A stretch of DNA of 42,078 nucleotides from Elusimicrobiaceae bacterium (GTDB taxonomy: Bacteria > Elusimicrobiota > Elusimicrobia > Elusimicrobiales > Elusimicrobiaceae): positions 1-42,078 of the forward strand of contig JAEEMS010000017.1 of NCBI GenBank assembly GCA_016283355.1, written 5' to 3'. The translations under genes and the position numbers were made by a program. Below, piece by piece: positions 26,792-33,236 of the stretch. Every line of letters starts with the position of its first letter. Positions within the stretch are counted from its first letter, which is position 1. A model generated the notes under the pieces. It had not been told where the DNA came from, did no database searches, and was given only the letters and a program-made list of their open reading frames with translations.

Positions 26792-27811
26792 TTAATTCGG
26801 CAAACGGCCTGCCATAAACTCGGCTACCGCACGCGTATGTTTAATTTTGCTTAACACAATTTTTAGCGACGCCGTCAGCGGTACAGATAGAAACGCACCG
26901 GGCACTCCCCAAACCAACGTCCAAAAAATAAGGGAGGTCACTACTGTAGCCGGATGGAGATCTAATCCTTCCCCCAAGAAACGGGGTTCCAACATATTCC
27001 CGATTATAAATTCAGAAATGGACAAAAGTCCCAATACTATAAAGAACCGATGTCCTAAACCAAACTGCAAAAATAAAACGGGAATCGGCAACAAAACAGC
27101 CAAAATAGAGCCCACACTGGGGATAAAATTGAGCAAGAAAACAAACAGCGCAAACACTATGGCCAATTTTACTTGGAAACCAAATAAAATACCGGCTGCC
27201 ACAATCCCCGTAATCAGCGATGCCGTTAACTTAACGGACAAATATACCGATACATTGGATAACATTTCTTTAATAGCCGGGTTGGTAATAGGGGGTGTTT
27301 TCTTGCTGCCAAACAAGAAAAATGTCATAAACAATACAATGAGCAACGCGCCGGATACCACGCTAAACACTTTCCCGCCCACATTTTTAAGCCAATTAAA
27401 TACCGGCAAATCCCGCAAATAATTCTCTACGAAACTTTGGTCCACCGTAATACCGTGATTTTGCACGGTTGTCAGCACATTATTAGCCGTTTCCACCAAA
27501 CTTTGGCGATATACTTCCACGCCTTTTAAAAAATCACCTACAGCATTAACGGTAAATACCACTACTGCCGCAAAAAAAGCAACAAACAACAAAATAGAGA
27601 AAGCCAGTGCCACCCATTTAGGGAAATGAAACCGATGGCGCAAATACAACGTCATCTGCGCCAAAATGGTGTAGAAAAAAATCGAAATGACCAACGGAAT
27701 AAGCAACGCCTTGGTATACACCAAAAAAGCCGTCACAATTCCCGCCGCGATAATCGTCAGACATACGGCACTTGTCTTTAAATAATAATAGTAAGGTTTA
27801 TCGGCACGCAT
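26792..27811 (-). CDS. AI-2E family transporter-like permease
   Basis: A 339-residue polytopic membrane protein of the AI-2E/UPF0118 family. Two N-terminal helices form a hairpin (about 15-55) and a third follows (about 65-90). A soluble segment (about 95-150) precedes the later helices, with family features FLLNFIPSVGSILAVLLPIP and EPRFLGEGLDLHPATVV. Members are linked to autoinducer-2 export, Na+/H+ exchange or other export, so the substrate is open. It overlaps the preceding gene by 14 bp and is last in the operon. Confidence 0.9.
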   Translation of the reverse strand: MRADKPYYYYLKTSAVCLTIIAAGIVTAFLVYTKALLIPLVISIFFYTILAQMTLYLRHRFHFPKWVALAFSILLFVAFFAAVVVFTVNAVGDFLKGVEVYRQSLVETANNVLTTVQNHGITVDQSFVENYLRDLPVFNWLKNVGGKVFSVVSGALLIVLFMTFFLFGSKKTPPITNPAIKEMLSNVSVYLSVKLTASLITGIVAAGILFGFQVKLAIVFALFVFLLNFIPSVGSILAVLLPIPVLFLQFGLGHRFFIVLGLLSISEFIIGNMLEPRFLGEGLDLHPATVVTSLIFWTLVWGVPGAFLSVPLTASLKIVLSKIKHTRAVAEFMAGRLPN

Positions 27812-28322
27812 AAGGTTTTCTGTTCCGCTCCGTTTTTTGGGCTATCTCCCGTGCCAGAAATAAAATTTTCCCCGTCAAGTTAGCAATGTCCGTTTGGCAG
27901 GAAGTAAGCAACCATACATTTAATTTGGCTGCCGTAAAATTTTTATAATGTTTACAAAAAGCATCGTACTGCGTAATAAATTCGTCACACGCCCGAGAAA
28001 GCATTTTGGCACGGCTATTTAACCCTTTAGCAGACAGCGTCAAAGAACCGTCCCATTCCGTTTCTTTGTGCGTGCGGATTTCCATTCGCAACCGTGCCCA
28101 TGTGGGTTCCTGTGCATTGACTTGCTCGCGCAATTGTTGGCAAAACTGATTAAACTCCTCCGCAAAAGTAACATCGCGCACTTCGATATTTTTGCGAATT
28201 TGTTGTAAAATTTGTACCAACCGTTTGCTGAAATCAGCCAAACTCGAACCCGCTCCCAACACTTCACAGCGAAGCAGCTCACACTGGGCACAAATCGCAT
28301 CTAATAATTGTTCGGTTGTCAT
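27798..28322 (-). CDS. Helical cytoplasmic protein, unknown
   Basis: A 174-residue protein predicted to be almost fully alpha-helical, with no signal or membrane segment and seven cysteines scattered through it. Family not recognised. The ATG at 28322 lies 5 bp after the histidine kinase stop; longer in-frame readings overlap the kinase and are rejected. Its place directly after a kinase that lacks any sensor domain makes a regulatory or partner role possible, but nothing in the sequence shows it. Confidence 0.72.
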   Translation of the reverse strand: MTTEQLLDAICAQCELLRCEVLGAGSSLADFSKRLVQILQQIRKNIEVRDVTFAEEFNQFCQQLREQVNAQEPTWARLRMEIRTHKETEWDGSLTLSAKGLNSRAKMLSRACDEFITQYDAFCKHYKNFTAAKLNVWLLTSCQTDIANLTGKILFLAREIAQKTERNRKPYACR

Positions 28323-28326
28323 ATTA

Positions 28327-29076
28327 TTAACGTGCAAATTTAACAGTAAAAATGGAACCCAGCCCTCGGTCCGATACCACGCTGGCAGATCCGCCATGTA
28401 ACTGCGCAATGCGTTGCACCATCGGCAAGCCAAGCCCTAACCCGCTGATTTGCCCGGTAAAATCATCATCCACCTGGAAAAACGGTTCAAAAATACGGCC
28501 TACATCTTGCGGGCGGACCCCTACCCCGTAATCGCGTACAGAAATGGAAATGCTATCTCCGTGGTTCGCCACTTGCACTTTAATATTCTTTTCCATCTTG
28601 TTATTAAATTTAATAGCATTGGAAAGGAGTTCTTCTATCCCCAAACGCACCATTTCTTCATTTGCATTGAGAGATAAATTAGCTGGGCAATCAATATCAA
28701 TAAATGTGCCCCGTTTAACCATGGTCTTTCCCGCATCGGTTGTTTCCAAACCGGTATCGTTCTTTTCTTGTAATACGGCTTGCGACGCACAGTCCTTCAA
28801 CAATTCTTTGAGTCCAAGTGTTTTCTTTTCCAATGCTTTTGGCGAAGATTCCATCACTTTATTGAAAGCACCAAGTTTGCGAACCAATTCCGCCAGATGT
28901 CTTCCTTGGACGTTAATTTCATCCAAAGCTTTGGCAGTAAAAGGGGAAAATTTTTCTTTATCCGCTTGCACCAAAACAGCTTCCGAATATCCGTTAATGA
29001 TAGAAAGCGAGGTGCGAAATTTATGTGCAATAATTGCTAACGCCCGAATGCTCAACCCTGTTTCATTTGGCTTCAT
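28327..29076 (-). CDS. Sensorless histidine kinase
   Basis: A 249-residue soluble histidine kinase. The HisKA-like helix begins almost at once, with phospho-acceptor His18 in AHKFRTSLSIINGYSE (usual H-E-x-R-T-P-L). The HATPase domain (about 130-249) has N box ELLSNAIKFN, G1 RDYGVGV, F box IFEPFFQ and G2 GLGLGLPMV, so ATP binding is intact. There is no PAS, GAF, HAMP or membrane segment, and no response regulator next to it. AAGGGG precedes ATG 29076, 9 bp after the outer-membrane protein gene. Signal input must come from another protein. Confidence 0.9.
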   Translation of the reverse strand: MKPNETGLSIRALAIIAHKFRTSLSIINGYSEAVLVQADKEKFSPFTAKALDEINVQGRHLAELVRKLGAFNKVMESSPKALEKKTLGLKELLKDCASQAVLQEKNDTGLETTDAGKTMVKRGTFIDIDCPANLSLNANEEMVRLGIEELLSNAIKFNNKMEKNIKVQVANHGDSISISVRDYGVGVRPQDVGRIFEPFFQVDDDFTGQISGLGLGLPMVQRIAQLHGGSASVVSDRGLGSIFTVKFAR

Positions 29077-29085
29077 AGATACCCC

Positions 29086-29961
29086 TTAAAAAACCCATCC
29101 AAGGTGCGCATACAAGATATCCCGTTTATGGCGGCTATGTACCGATTGTATATGGTTGTAACCCACATCCGCCCGGATAGCTTGCGTAAGGGAAAAAGTA
29201 TTTCCCACCACAAAAGAGTGTTCCGGTTCGGTGGAATAAAATTCCGCAAAACGATATCCCGCATACAAAGAGGCCTGACGTTCCATCCAAATACGTGTCA
29301 AACGTGCCCCCACATTGTATTTCCCCAGGTCGTGGCTAAAATCAAAAGTTTGGGAAGGCGCCAAATCCTGTTGATCCATAATACCGCGGAACCCTTCTAC
29401 GCCCGTAATTCCGTCGGGGTAATGATAAGCATTCCCCGTTACTTCAAAACTAAAAGAACGGAAGAAATTTTTGTGCACCCCTAGCGTATAAGCCAACTGA
29501 TTATACGATTGATTAGAGGCCGTTCCGTTGTCCAGAAACAAAGTGCCGGTTTGGCGAGCAAAAGAAACCCCGACGTACGCATGCGTGTACAATTCTTCCA
29601 CGCTGTCTTCCTGCAACGTCATAAGCAAGCGCCCGGTCACGCCCCAAGCAGAAGCATCTTGATATTCGCTTTGGTGGCTTTTATTTTTGAAATAGTAAAA
29701 AGGTGTTACGTATGCTTTGAGCAATTCATTTTCCAGTTGCAAAGGCACGTAGACGGAATAAATGGGATCTTTTAATGCCTTTTCATCTGTAAAACGTGCT
29801 TCTATCCCTGTAGAAAAAGAAAGCGAAAGATTTGTTTCAATCGCAGCGGCCGCTTGATAAAACTTAGAAGAGCCGCGATAAGCGGCCGAAATTTCCCACG
29901 GAGCGGAAAACCCGTTCAAACCGCTAAGCACTACTACAAACCCTAGAATAAATTTCTTCAT
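29086..29961 (-). CDS. Probable outer-membrane beta-barrel protein
   Basis: A 291-residue exported protein with a signal peptide (about 1-19) and many short alternating hydrophobic strands rich in aromatic residues. It ends in LYAHLGWVF, a terminal aromatic that fits the outer-membrane insertion signal. No family recognised; the size suggests 10-14 strands. The start has no Shine-Dalgarno, but TTTAAT lies six bases upstream. First gene of an operon with a histidine kinase, a helical protein and an AI-2E-type permease. Confidence 0.75.
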   Translation of the reverse strand: MKKFILGFVVVLSGLNGFSAPWEISAAYRGSSKFYQAAAAIETNLSLSFSTGIEARFTDEKALKDPIYSVYVPLQLENELLKAYVTPFYYFKNKSHQSEYQDASAWGVTGRLLMTLQEDSVEELYTHAYVGVSFARQTGTLFLDNGTASNQSYNQLAYTLGVHKNFFRSFSFEVTGNAYHYPDGITGVEGFRGIMDQQDLAPSQTFDFSHDLGKYNVGARLTRIWMERQASLYAGYRFAEFYSTEPEHSFVVGNTFSLTQAIRADVGYNHIQSVHSRHKRDILYAHLGWVF

Positions 29962-29973: not shown

Positions 29974-30027
29974 CTAAATTTCCGCGTTTTTTAAAAGAAA
30001 AATGAACAGCGTGTCCCGTTCCAGATT

Positions 30028-30036
30028 TGGTACAAT
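30028..30036 (+). promoter_or_regulatory. Extended -10 of the metallophosphoesterase-fold gene, predicted leaderless
   Basis: TGGTACAAT, hexamer at 30031-30036, six bases before ATG 30043. No Shine-Dalgarno. Confidence 0.5.
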
Positions 30037-30042
30037 AAAGTC

Positions 30043-31287
30043 ATGAAAAAAATGTTTTTCTTTTTTACTTTGTGTCTTTTTTTGACGGGGACGCTACAAG
30101 CCGCCCAAATTATTCGCGGACCTTATTTGGAAAATGTTACCCAAAATACCATCATTTTGAAATGGCAAACCGACACCGCCACTCCCAGTTGGTTGGAATA
30201 TGGCCCTGCACCCGATAATTGCAATCAAATCATGACGTTGACCCCTTCCGGCTACAGTCACCGCGTTGTTTTATACGGATTGGTGCCAAACCAAGATTTT
30301 TGTTACCGCGTGTATGTAGGGAACAATGCGCAAACCGGTGTGCAAAACCCGGTAGAAGGTTCTTTCCGCACGCTGTTTTCGGCCGAGCGCAAAATTGTTA
30401 ATTTTTTGGCCATTGGTTCCACCTCCTCTTCCGCACAGACGTTGCCCGAAGTAGATCTAAGCGGAGATCTTTCCCAACCCCTCGCGACAACAGATGCGGC
30501 CGCCGTCCCACGTGCTGAACTGGGAGCACTGATGGCCCAACACAACGCAGATTTCTTGATTCATACCGGCAATCTCACACACAGCGGACTTAATCAGGAC
30601 GCTAACAAAGAATTCTTTGCACCGCTACGCGATGTGCTCAAAAAAACTCCTCTCTTTGTAGCGTTAGGGCCCAATGAATACGGCCCAAACCGGCAGAGCA
30701 AAGACAGCCAAACTTTCCTGCGCACCAATTACTCCCGTTATCATGATATGACGTGGAGCAATGCCACTCCCAAATACTATTCTTTTGATACGGCCAATGC
30801 GCGTTTTGTGTTTTTAGATACAAACATCACCCAAGGAGCTACTTGGGCACCCGAATTGGGGGAGGAATCTGCGCAAATAAAGTGGCTGAAAACCACGTTA
30901 GCCGGCGCACCGGAAAAATGGAAAATAGTGGTAATGAATACACCGGCGTATTCCACCGGGGCAAATGGTTTTAATCAAGAAGTGCGGGACAGATTATCCA
31001 AAATATTTGAAGATTACCGCGTAAAACTTGTATTGCAAGGCGGAGATGCCAACTACGAGCGCACCTTCCCCATGCTACGTGGGGAAACCAACCAACGCGG
31101 TGTAACGTACGTTACCTTGGGAACCGCCGGCCCGACCCCTACCAAACGCGTCTCCAGCGACCCTTCCACCGCACGTTTTGTGGCCACTCCTCACTATGCC
31201 GTGGGTAAAATTGTGGACCACAAATTAACATTAACTGTTTTTAGTAATACCGGCAAACAGTTAGATAAACTGGAAATATATCTATAA
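30043..31287 (+). CDS. Exported metallophosphoesterase-fold protein lacking metal ligands
   Basis: A 414-residue exported protein with a signal peptide (1-20), a fibronectin-III-like purple-acid-phosphatase N-domain (about 21-112) and a calcineurin-like phosphoesterase domain (about 118-400). The fold is easily traced by motif position, but the ligands are replaced. HTGN (Asn177) stands where HTGD is expected, GPNE (209-212) for GNHE, VMNTPAYS (Asn299) for a His, and QGGDANYER (332-340) for SGHDHNYER. The first Asp-x-His motif is also missing (IGSTSSS). It is therefore probably a non-catalytic binding protein. The gene is intact and single, with its own promoter and terminator. Confidence 0.87.
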   Translation: MKKMFFFFTLCLFLTGTLQAAQIIRGPYLENVTQNTIILKWQTDTATPSWLEYGPAPDNCNQIMTLTPSGYSHRVVLYGLVPNQDFCYRVYVGNNAQTGVQNPVEGSFRTLFSAERKIVNFLAIGSTSSSAQTLPEVDLSGDLSQPLATTDAAAVPRAELGALMAQHNADFLIHTGNLTHSGLNQDANKEFFAPLRDVLKKTPLFVALGPNEYGPNRQSKDSQTFLRTNYSRYHDMTWSNATPKYYSFDTANARFVFLDTNITQGATWAPELGEESAQIKWLKTTLAGAPEKWKIVVMNTPAYSTGANGFNQEVRDRLSKIFEDYRVKLVLQGGDANYERTFPMLRGETNQRGVTYVTLGTAGPTPTKRVSSDPSTARFVATPHYAVGKIVDHKLTLTVFSNTGKQLDKLEIYL

Positions 31288-31304
31288 GCAAACTCTATAT
31301 GATA

Positions 31305-31330
31305 GCCCCCGGCGTTTATCCGGGGGTTTT
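31305..31330 (+). terminator. Terminator after the metallophosphoesterase-fold gene
   Basis: CCCCCGG (31306-31312) pairs with CCGGGGG (31320-31326), followed by TTTT. Confidence 0.85.
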
Positions 31331-31346
31331 AAATATAACGATTCTT

Positions 31347-33104
31347 CTACTTTTTAAGATTCTCTACGCTATTCCAATAATTTGCCACTTGTCGCAACAA
31401 ATCCCTCAACTCCGGATATTGGGTCCGATTAAGAGGGCTCTCCAATTTTGGTCGGATGCCGTTGACAAGCCAATCTTCGGCCATGCGCGCTTTGTTGTAG
31501 AGTTGCTGCGCATGCGCGGCAGACAATAGCGGATAGTCACCGGTAGCATCCAATTCAATGAGCAGTTGGTTTTGGCACAGTAACTCCCGGGCATACGCAA
31601 AGGCGTAAAACTGTTCTACCCAACCCCTTTCGGCCAATACGGACTTTTCCTGGTTGGTAGGCGGAAGCATTCCAATCCAAAAAGCAGACGGATCTGTTAT
31701 TGAGGCACGAACGAAGTCAAAATCGCCTTGACTTACAATGTTTTTCTCTTTTGAGGGGAGAAATGGGTTTTTCTCCCTTAACATTTGCGACAATTCGGTA
31801 GCTTGTGCGCGCACCTGTTCTTCCGAATACTCCGTCGCGTTTTTATTTTTCAGCTTATAATCATGAGGGCGGTTACTCAGTAACAAGGGATCGGCCCAAT
31901 TACTCGTTTGGCGGGGTCGCCCGATCCAATGAGGATGAACATCTTCGGAAAAACCATATTTTTCTTGATATTTTTGAGGAATTTTTACGCTGCGCGGTTG
32001 CAAAAAACGATAGTATTCGGCCAAGCGGGAAAGCGCTTCATACAAATCGTGTTGCAAAGGAGTTCCTCCGTCCATATTGTATTGAATAAATGCGACCAAT
32101 TGCGCTTTTACCGCGTATACTTCCCCTCGGAGTTGACTAGCCAAACGTTCCATATCTCCGGAGGAAAATTGTTGCGGATGTTCCAAATAATCTTGTAAAT
32201 TGGCAATATGTCGCTTCAGTTCGGAAATGATTGTTTGATTGATAGATTCATACCTATCCAAAAACGCTTGCGTTACTTTGTCTTTATGACTGGCAGGCCA
32301 ATACTCATTTTCATAATAAACACAAAGAAACTCTTGGTCTGTTGTGTTTTCTGCTTTTTCCAAAGTGTTCTCTAACATCTTCAATACATTTTCGGTCTGT
32401 TCAATATGATAGCGTGGCCTTTCCTTCTGTTCGCGGGCCAATACATTTAACGCTTCATCTTCCGGGGTTCCTTTTACAGGCAACCAAGCATAGATGGATT
32501 CCTCTGTAAATTGGTCCATCATGAGAAGCAATGGGTCTTTGATGCCGTTACCGACCATTCCATTTTTCGCGTAGCTAATCATTCGTTCAGACAAGGGAAT
32601 ACTTTCTGCAGAGTAGAGTACATTAGGAAAAACTGCCAACGCTTCGTATTTGTAAGCGGCCACCCGATAGGCAGCTTGATAAAAATCCCCTCCCAGTTCC
32701 TGTTCCAATATGAAGCGGTTTAAAAAATCAAATTCTCCGTGGCGTAGTGCCACATCCACTGCCAACTCTCCAAAATAAGCTCCTTCCGGTTTGTCGCGAA
32801 ATAACTTGTAAGAGTCCTCTATGAGGGGCAAAACATCCTGTGAAGTAATATGGCCAAGAGGTATAAGGTCCTGCAAAAGAACAGAGGCATTGTGTATCTC
32901 CAATGGAGATGACCCTAACGGAGAGAACCTCTTGCGATCTGTCAAAAGAGACAAATTAGTCCGCACACGATGTAAAGCAGCATCAAATCCTCCCCTTTGT
33001 TTCAAAATGTTGTTAATTTGCAAAGGGTTTATTTTTGGTTTTCCGGCAGCAATTGCCGATAACGGCAACCAGGCGGCCAAGATAAGTAAAATTATTTTCT
33101 TCAT
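31347..33104 (-). CDS. Large exported helical protein, unknown
   Basis: A 585-residue protein with a signal peptide (about 1-19, ending AIAA) and a long, mostly helical body rich in Leu, Glu, Gln and Tyr. I do not recognise the family and see no catalytic motif. ATG 33104 is chosen because GGAGG precedes it by five bases. It appears to be a single gene, bounded by terminators at 31305-31330 and 33243-33265. Its 5' region (33105-33240) contains a small hairpin (GACCC/GGGTC near 33152-33165). Periplasmic or surface location is inferred from the signal. Confidence 0.8.
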   Translation of the reverse strand: MKKIILLILAAWLPLSAIAAGKPKINPLQINNILKQRGGFDAALHRVRTNLSLLTDRKRFSPLGSSPLEIHNASVLLQDLIPLGHITSQDVLPLIEDSYKLFRDKPEGAYFGELAVDVALRHGEFDFLNRFILEQELGGDFYQAAYRVAAYKYEALAVFPNVLYSAESIPLSERMISYAKNGMVGNGIKDPLLLMMDQFTEESIYAWLPVKGTPEDEALNVLAREQKERPRYHIEQTENVLKMLENTLEKAENTTDQEFLCVYYENEYWPASHKDKVTQAFLDRYESINQTIISELKRHIANLQDYLEHPQQFSSGDMERLASQLRGEVYAVKAQLVAFIQYNMDGGTPLQHDLYEALSRLAEYYRFLQPRSVKIPQKYQEKYGFSEDVHPHWIGRPRQTSNWADPLLLSNRPHDYKLKNKNATEYSEEQVRAQATELSQMLREKNPFLPSKEKNIVSQGDFDFVRASITDPSAFWIGMLPPTNQEKSVLAERGWVEQFYAFAYARELLCQNQLLIELDATGDYPLLSAAHAQQLYNKARMAEDWLVNGIRPKLESPLNRTQYPELRDLLRQVANYWNSVENLKK

Positions 33105-33236
33105 ATATTCCTCCAATAGGGATATTTATAATGTAGCTAATCGCCGGAAGGACCCACAAGGGTCTTTAGGCCCAGGGAGAAAATAGGTCTTTTGGGAAAT
33201 GATAAAAAGGATTACAACAAGGGTTGGAGAAGCGCA

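What the first reader, a model, noticed from the sequence alone, without database searches (positions are those of the whole stretch)
30043..31287. Intact metallophosphoesterase fold with its metal-ligand motifs substituted
The motif positions are easy to align (HTGD to HTGN, GNHE to GPNE, His to Asn299, GHDHNYER to GGDANYER, first D-x-H absent), and the purple-acid-phosphatase N-domain is kept. Loss at each site with an intact reading frame and its own promoter points to a selected pseudoenzyme, perhaps a binding protein for phosphorylated or sugar ligands in the envelope.
Basis: partly seen in the sequence, partly recalled or inferred. Interest (0 to 1): 0.6.

Follow-up and report, generated by a model that had tools for sequence, protein, structure and literature searches.

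The report
Secreted phosphatase without its metal site
A secreted protein of gut Elusimicrobiota keeps the shape of a purple acid phosphatase but has lost every metal-holding residue, and related copies lost theirs independently at least twice more, so the protein seems to be kept for something other than cutting phosphates.

Summary
ORF 30043-31287 (414 aa) has a signal peptide, a PAP-type N-domain and a calcineurin-like domain (both over Pfam cut-offs), and none of the metal ligands of that fold. The losses are not an accident of one genome: all 36 high-quality genomes of the genus carry the gene, none of 42 aligned orthologues keeps more than two of six ligands, and dN/dS is about 0.03-0.12. 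Relatives in a sister family of the same order mostly keep all six ligands (GDSG, HTGD, GNHDY, VxxH, GHDHxYERT) and lie directly behind adenine deaminase. Degenerate copies sit at that same locus, so the site was lost in place. At least three losses are independent (AU test rejects one degenerate clade, p = 0.0016). In the window's genus the six ligand columns moved from the 7th to the 61st rate percentile, while equally conserved non-ligand columns stayed at the 32nd (P = 0.003). Constraint on the metal pocket is gone; the fold is held. 'Selected pseudoenzyme' is supported. 'Binding phosphates or sugars in the old pocket' is not specifically supported, since the pocket evolves at an average pace. 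I favour a non-catalytic envelope adaptor or scaffold. Function is inferred, not shown.

The parts
30026..30036 (+). Extended -10 promoter box TTTGGTACAAT, ending 6 nt before the start codon (apparently leaderless transcript)
   Evidence: Box recurs in the upstream DNA of nearly all of 19 orthologues inspected; exact match located; the generic sigma-70 scan missed it
30043..31287 (+). Pseudo-purple-acid-phosphatase gene, 414 aa, including stop
   Evidence: ORF; Pfam; orthologues
30043..30105 (+). Signal peptide, residues 1-21 (cleavage site inferred by eye, about LQA|AQ). No lipobox cysteine
   Evidence: Sequence; LPAM_1 hit below cut-off; helix 3-16 in the model
30106..30378 (+). PAP-type N-domain (FnIII-like), residues 22-112, with C60 and C87 conserved in intact and degenerate homologues (possible disulfide)
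   Evidence: Pfam Pur_ac_phosph_N; conserved columns; model
30394..31284 (+). Metallophosphoesterase-fold domain, residues 118-414, without metal ligands
   Evidence: Pfam Metallophos; Foldseek to PAPs
30418..30420 (+). Former ligand, motif I: D126 -> Ser (M1 metal)
30571..30573 (+). Former ligand, motif II: D177 -> Asn (metal-bridging Asp)
30670..30675 (+). Former motif III: N210 -> Pro (M2 ligand), H211 -> Asn (second sphere)
30937..30939 (+). Former ligand, motif IV: H299 -> Asn (M2)
31042..31050 (+). Former motif V: H334 -> Gly (M2), D335 kept, H336 -> Ala (M1)
31304..31328 (+). Terminator-like hairpin (stem of 9 pairs, loop of 7) shortly after the stop codon
   Evidence: Fold z-score -3.2; not flagged by the terminator scan
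29086..29961 (-). Divergent neighbour: outer-membrane beta-barrel protein of 291 aa, adjacent throughout the genus and in some sister genera
   Evidence: Synteny; AF2 pLDDT 89.9, all-beta; Foldseek to OmpG and other outer-membrane barrels; C-terminal Phe in 41 of 41 orthologues
28327..29076 (-). Histidine kinase without an evident membrane segment, part of the conserved neighbourhood
   Evidence: Pfam HATPase_c, HisKA; synteny
26792..27811 (-). AI-2E family transporter, part of the conserved neighbourhood
   Evidence: Pfam; synteny

Best explanation
The gene encodes an exported, catalytically dead member of the purple-acid-phosphatase / calcineurin-like metallophosphoesterase fold. Shown: homologues in the sister family lie behind adenine deaminase and are intact in most of its genera; the dimetal site was lost at that locus several times; in the window's family the gene is not at that locus and mostly sits beside an outer-membrane barrel gene; the protein is under strong purifying selection while its former metal positions are no longer specially constrained. 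Inferred: it folds without metal and works in the periplasm or at the envelope by contact, as an adaptor, scaffold or binding protein using surfaces other than the old pocket. Repeated loss of catalysis without loss of the gene suggests that this non-catalytic role was already present in the active ancestor. Also inferred, and weaker: the partner may be an envelope component such as the neighbouring barrel.
For: Fold and domains kept: (Foldseek: plant PAPs E down to 4e-21, mammalian PAPs TM 0.65-0.72 by target length). All six ligands absent here, at most two of six in any of 42 genus orthologues. Present in all 36 high-quality genus genomes. dN/dS 0.03-0.12, similar to the AI-2E transporter and mostly lower than the barrel. 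Ligand columns shift from the 7th to the 61st rate percentile, matched non-ligand columns 32nd, P = 0.0034. Independent losses. Adenine deaminase just upstream in 48 of 48 sister-family loci with at least 250 nt of upstream DNA, 14 of them degenerate. Barrel neighbour.
Against: No activity, metal or binding data exist. The barrel gene is unlinked in several sister-genus genomes and in the sister family, so a barrel partnership is only a lead; no partner is shown. In sister genus g5 some copies keep D177, H299 and H334 with Glu at 210, which could still hold one metal.
Confidence: 0.62

Rival explanations
1. The old active site was rebuilt into a metal-free pocket that binds a phosphorylated compound or sugar.
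For: Asn is common at 177, 211 and 299 in the genus (31, 38 and 39 of 42), giving a polar cleft; flanking motifs YER, EYG and PxYSxG are invariant.
Against: The six ligand columns sit at the 61st rate percentile on average in this genus; 126, 180 and 336 vary freely. Intact and degenerate copies share the flanking motifs, so these probably hold the fold rather than a new pocket.
Confidence: 0.18
2. It is still an enzyme, with one metal or with ligands from shifted positions.
For: Sister genus g5 keeps three of six ligands in some copies plus Glu at 210. D/E335 and E212 are conserved acidic residues near the site.
Against: Of 15 Asp/His columns invariant in the intact set, D126, D177, H211, H299, H334 and H336 are all replaced in the genus, and no new invariant Asp or His appears next to the motifs. 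Ligands of both metals are gone.
Confidence: 0.08
3. It regulates an active phosphatase as a non-catalytic partner or decoy.
For: Six other Metallophos-domain genes exist in the genome. Pseudoenzymes often regulate active relatives (general knowledge).
Against: The window genome has no second protein with a PAP N-domain, and no other metallophosphoesterase was found among the neighbours.
Confidence: 0.08
4. A decaying relic on its way to loss.
For: All catalytic residues are gone.
Against: Kept in 36 of 36 high-quality genus genomes, no stops inside, dN/dS 0.03-0.12, conserved promoter box.
Confidence: 0.02

Closest known systems
Purple acid phosphatases with an N-terminal FnIII-like domain (kidney bean PAP 1kbp/2qfp, lupin PPD1 3zk4) and mammalian PAP/TRAP (1ute, 1qhw)
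   Same: Domain order, fold and motif positions
   Different: PAPs have seven invariant metal ligands (PMC2267794: D135, D164, Y167, N201, H286, H323, H325); none of them is kept here
Plasmodium GAP50 (3tgh)
   Same: PAP fold that serves as a membrane anchor of the glideosome (PMC8949495); structural match E 5.9e-14
   Different: GAP50 has also been described as a phosphatase (PMC8949495, PMC4256932); eukaryotic. Its ligand set was not compared here
Vps29 (5xcj)
   Same: Metallophosphoesterase fold used as a protein scaffold in retromer (general knowledge); weak structural match
   Different: Cytosolic, smaller, no N-domain
Intact homologue in the same order (for example L130, encoded behind adenine deaminase)
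   Same: Same two-domain exported protein, profile E about 1e-113
   Different: All six ligands present; different gene neighbourhood

Membership tests
Calcineurin-like metallophosphoesterase superfamily (homology) | Pfam Metallophos over its curated cut-off, and the fold | tested here: met
   31.3 bits against 21.5; Foldseek to PAPs
Purple acid phosphatase (as an enzyme) | Seven metal ligands D, D, Y, N, H, H, H | tested here: not met
   All absent; ligand set from PMC2267794
Purple acid phosphatase (as an enzyme) | N-terminal PAP domain | tested here: met
   33.1 bits against cut-off 30
Purple acid phosphatase (as an enzyme) | Metal-dependent acid phosphatase activity and purple colour | not testable with these tools
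   Needs purified protein
Pseudoenzyme | Catalytic residues lost from an ancestor that had them | tested here: met
   Outgroup homologues of the class and most of the sister family are intact; trees
Pseudoenzyme | Kept by selection | tested here: met
   36 of 36 high-quality genomes; dN/dS
Pseudoenzyme | Lack of activity measured | not testable with these tools
   Needs an assay

The most novel reading that the evidence does not exclude
A bacterial PAP-fold protein had a non-catalytic envelope function from early on, so that its dimetal site was dispensable and was lost at least three times, with different replacement residues each time, while the protein stayed under purifying selection.
Probability: 0.45. 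Interest if true: 0.58.

Novelty: new variant of a known kind. Interest (0 to 1): 0.44.

Why it matters
Pseudoenzymes are usually recognised as single dead paralogues. Here active-looking and dead versions occupy the same locus in one bacterial family, with partly degenerate forms in a sister family. That allows a direct test of whether a hidden non-catalytic role came before the loss of catalysis. It also warns that 'phosphatase' annotations are probably wrong for this gene in gut Elusimicrobiota.

Tried and rejected
Ligands supplied from neighbouring positions: no new invariant Asp/His near the motifs in the genus. Frameshift or assembly error: same state in 42 orthologues, no stops. Active paralogue in the genome: no other PAP-N protein. 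One common loss for all degenerate copies: rejected by AU test, p = 0.0016; but one loss for all degenerate copies outside genus g18 was not rejected, p = 0.257, so I claim three losses and not seven. Special conservation of the N-domain in the genus: none found (mean percentile 0.47 against 0.50). The GAP50 structure paper is not held. No paper in the library pairs 'purple acid phosphatase' with 'pseudoenzyme'.

Full report
Observation. The ORF at 30043-31287 codes for 414 residues. It starts with a signal peptide and contains a PAP N-domain and a Metallophos domain, both over Pfam's cut-offs. Sequence searches of solved structures give mammalian and plant purple acid phosphatases. A model (pLDDT 77.8) matches the same proteins and Plasmodium GAP50 by fold. 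The metal ligands of red kidney bean PAP are D135, D164, Y167, N201, H286, H323 and H325 (PMC2267794). Their counterparts here are S126, N177, none (tyrosine lost by a one-residue deletion in the whole order), P210, N299, G334 and A336.

Distribution. The window lies in a 1.4 Mb genome whose relatives are gut Elusimicrobiota (record titles: Elusimicrobiaceae, Candidatus Avelusimicrobium). Of 66 genomes of the genus 64 have the gene, and all 36 of high quality. Across 42 orthologues the ligand columns read A/N/S at 126, N (D in one subclade) at 177, P/A at 210, N at 299, G/A at 334, and mostly A but variable at 336. None keeps more than two of six ligands. Pairs of close orthologues have dN/dS 0.03-0.12 (several dS values are near saturation, so these are approximate).

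Where it came from. A profile search of 341 genomes of the phylum found homologues in 29 of 100 genera. In the sister family of the same order most genera keep GDSG, HTGD, GNHDY, VxxH and GHDHxYERT, as do more distant homologues in the class. In that family the gene follows the adenine deaminase gene in all 48 loci that have at least 250 nt of upstream DNA (L131 and L136 have larger gaps, the others less than about 85 nt). Fourteen of these 48 are degenerate. They occupy the same place as the intact copies, so catalysis was lost there without loss of the gene. In the window's family, adenine deaminase is mostly absent (5 genomes have it), and the gene sits beside the outer-membrane barrel, histidine kinase and AI-2E transporter genes in the genus, in g2, in g6 (kinase not detected there) and in part of g5. 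That the copies of the two families are orthologous rests on the tree (one clade of 47 rows, 100/100), not on synteny.

Independent losses. Trees built without the ligand columns place L190 with the intact L197 (100/95) and L188 plus L194 with the intact L158 (100/99). Holding all degenerate rows in one clade is rejected (p-AU 0.0016); holding all but the g18 rows together is not (p 0.257). The minimum is therefore three losses if regain of six ligands is excluded. The replacement residues differ between lineages, for example E126/G177 with S210/S211 in g16, G126 with L210/S211/N299 in L188 and L194, and S126/N177/P210/N211/N299 in the window. The PAP tyrosine is missing from the whole order, including intact copies, so its loss is older.

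Constraint. In 30 intact homologues the six ligand columns lie at the 7th rate percentile on average. In the genus they lie at the 61st, while 83 other columns that are also in the slowest quarter of the intact set lie at the 32nd (P = 0.0034 by resampling). So the metal site has lost its special constraint and the rest of the fold has not. The N-domain is not more constrained in the genus than in the intact set. This speaks against both continued metal catalysis and a strongly selected new pocket at the old site.

Expression. A box TTTGnTAnAAT lies a few nucleotides before the ATG in nearly all of 19 orthologues inspected, which implies a transcript that starts at or next to the start codon. 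A hairpin follows the stop codon.

Mechanism. Shown: PAP fold by sequence and model, ligands absent, selection on the protein. From sequence: export by signal peptide. Inferred: no catalysis; function by contact in the envelope. The barrel neighbour (AF2 pLDDT 89.9, matching OmpG and other outer-membrane barrels) is a candidate partner, but the two genes are unlinked in the sister family and in several g5 genomes.

Limits. Most genomes are metagenome-assembled. Tree positions of L127, L128 and L129 are unsure because of long branches. No biochemical data exist.

Noticed in passing
30026-30036; also before 14534 and 22801: Extended -10 boxes TGnTAnAAT end 6 nt before the ATG at three genes of the window, implying leaderless transcripts; over 450 genes of the genus loci 27 have the box at 6-7 nt, though many of these are the same gene in different genomes.
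   Followed up: partly
L130 and other sister-family loci: A secreted PAP-like phosphatase gene directly follows adenine deaminase throughout a family of Elusimicrobiota; a link to purine salvage is possible but untested.
   Followed up: partly
L122-L126, L160-L170 (genus g5): Intermediate state: some copies keep D177, H299 and H334 and have Glu at 210, so one metal (M2) may still bind.
   Followed up: partly
27798-28433: A 211-aa ORF without Pfam match lies between the histidine kinase and the AI-2E transporter and is kept in that order across the genus; from its TTG start it overlaps the kinase ORF, so the true start is probably further in.
   Followed up: no
31347-33116: 589-aa ORF with signal peptide and no Pfam match, convergent to the gene; no homologue was found in any of the fetched genus loci, and in the nearest relative L002 the next gene follows directly, so it looks like an insertion in this genome.
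   Followed up: partly
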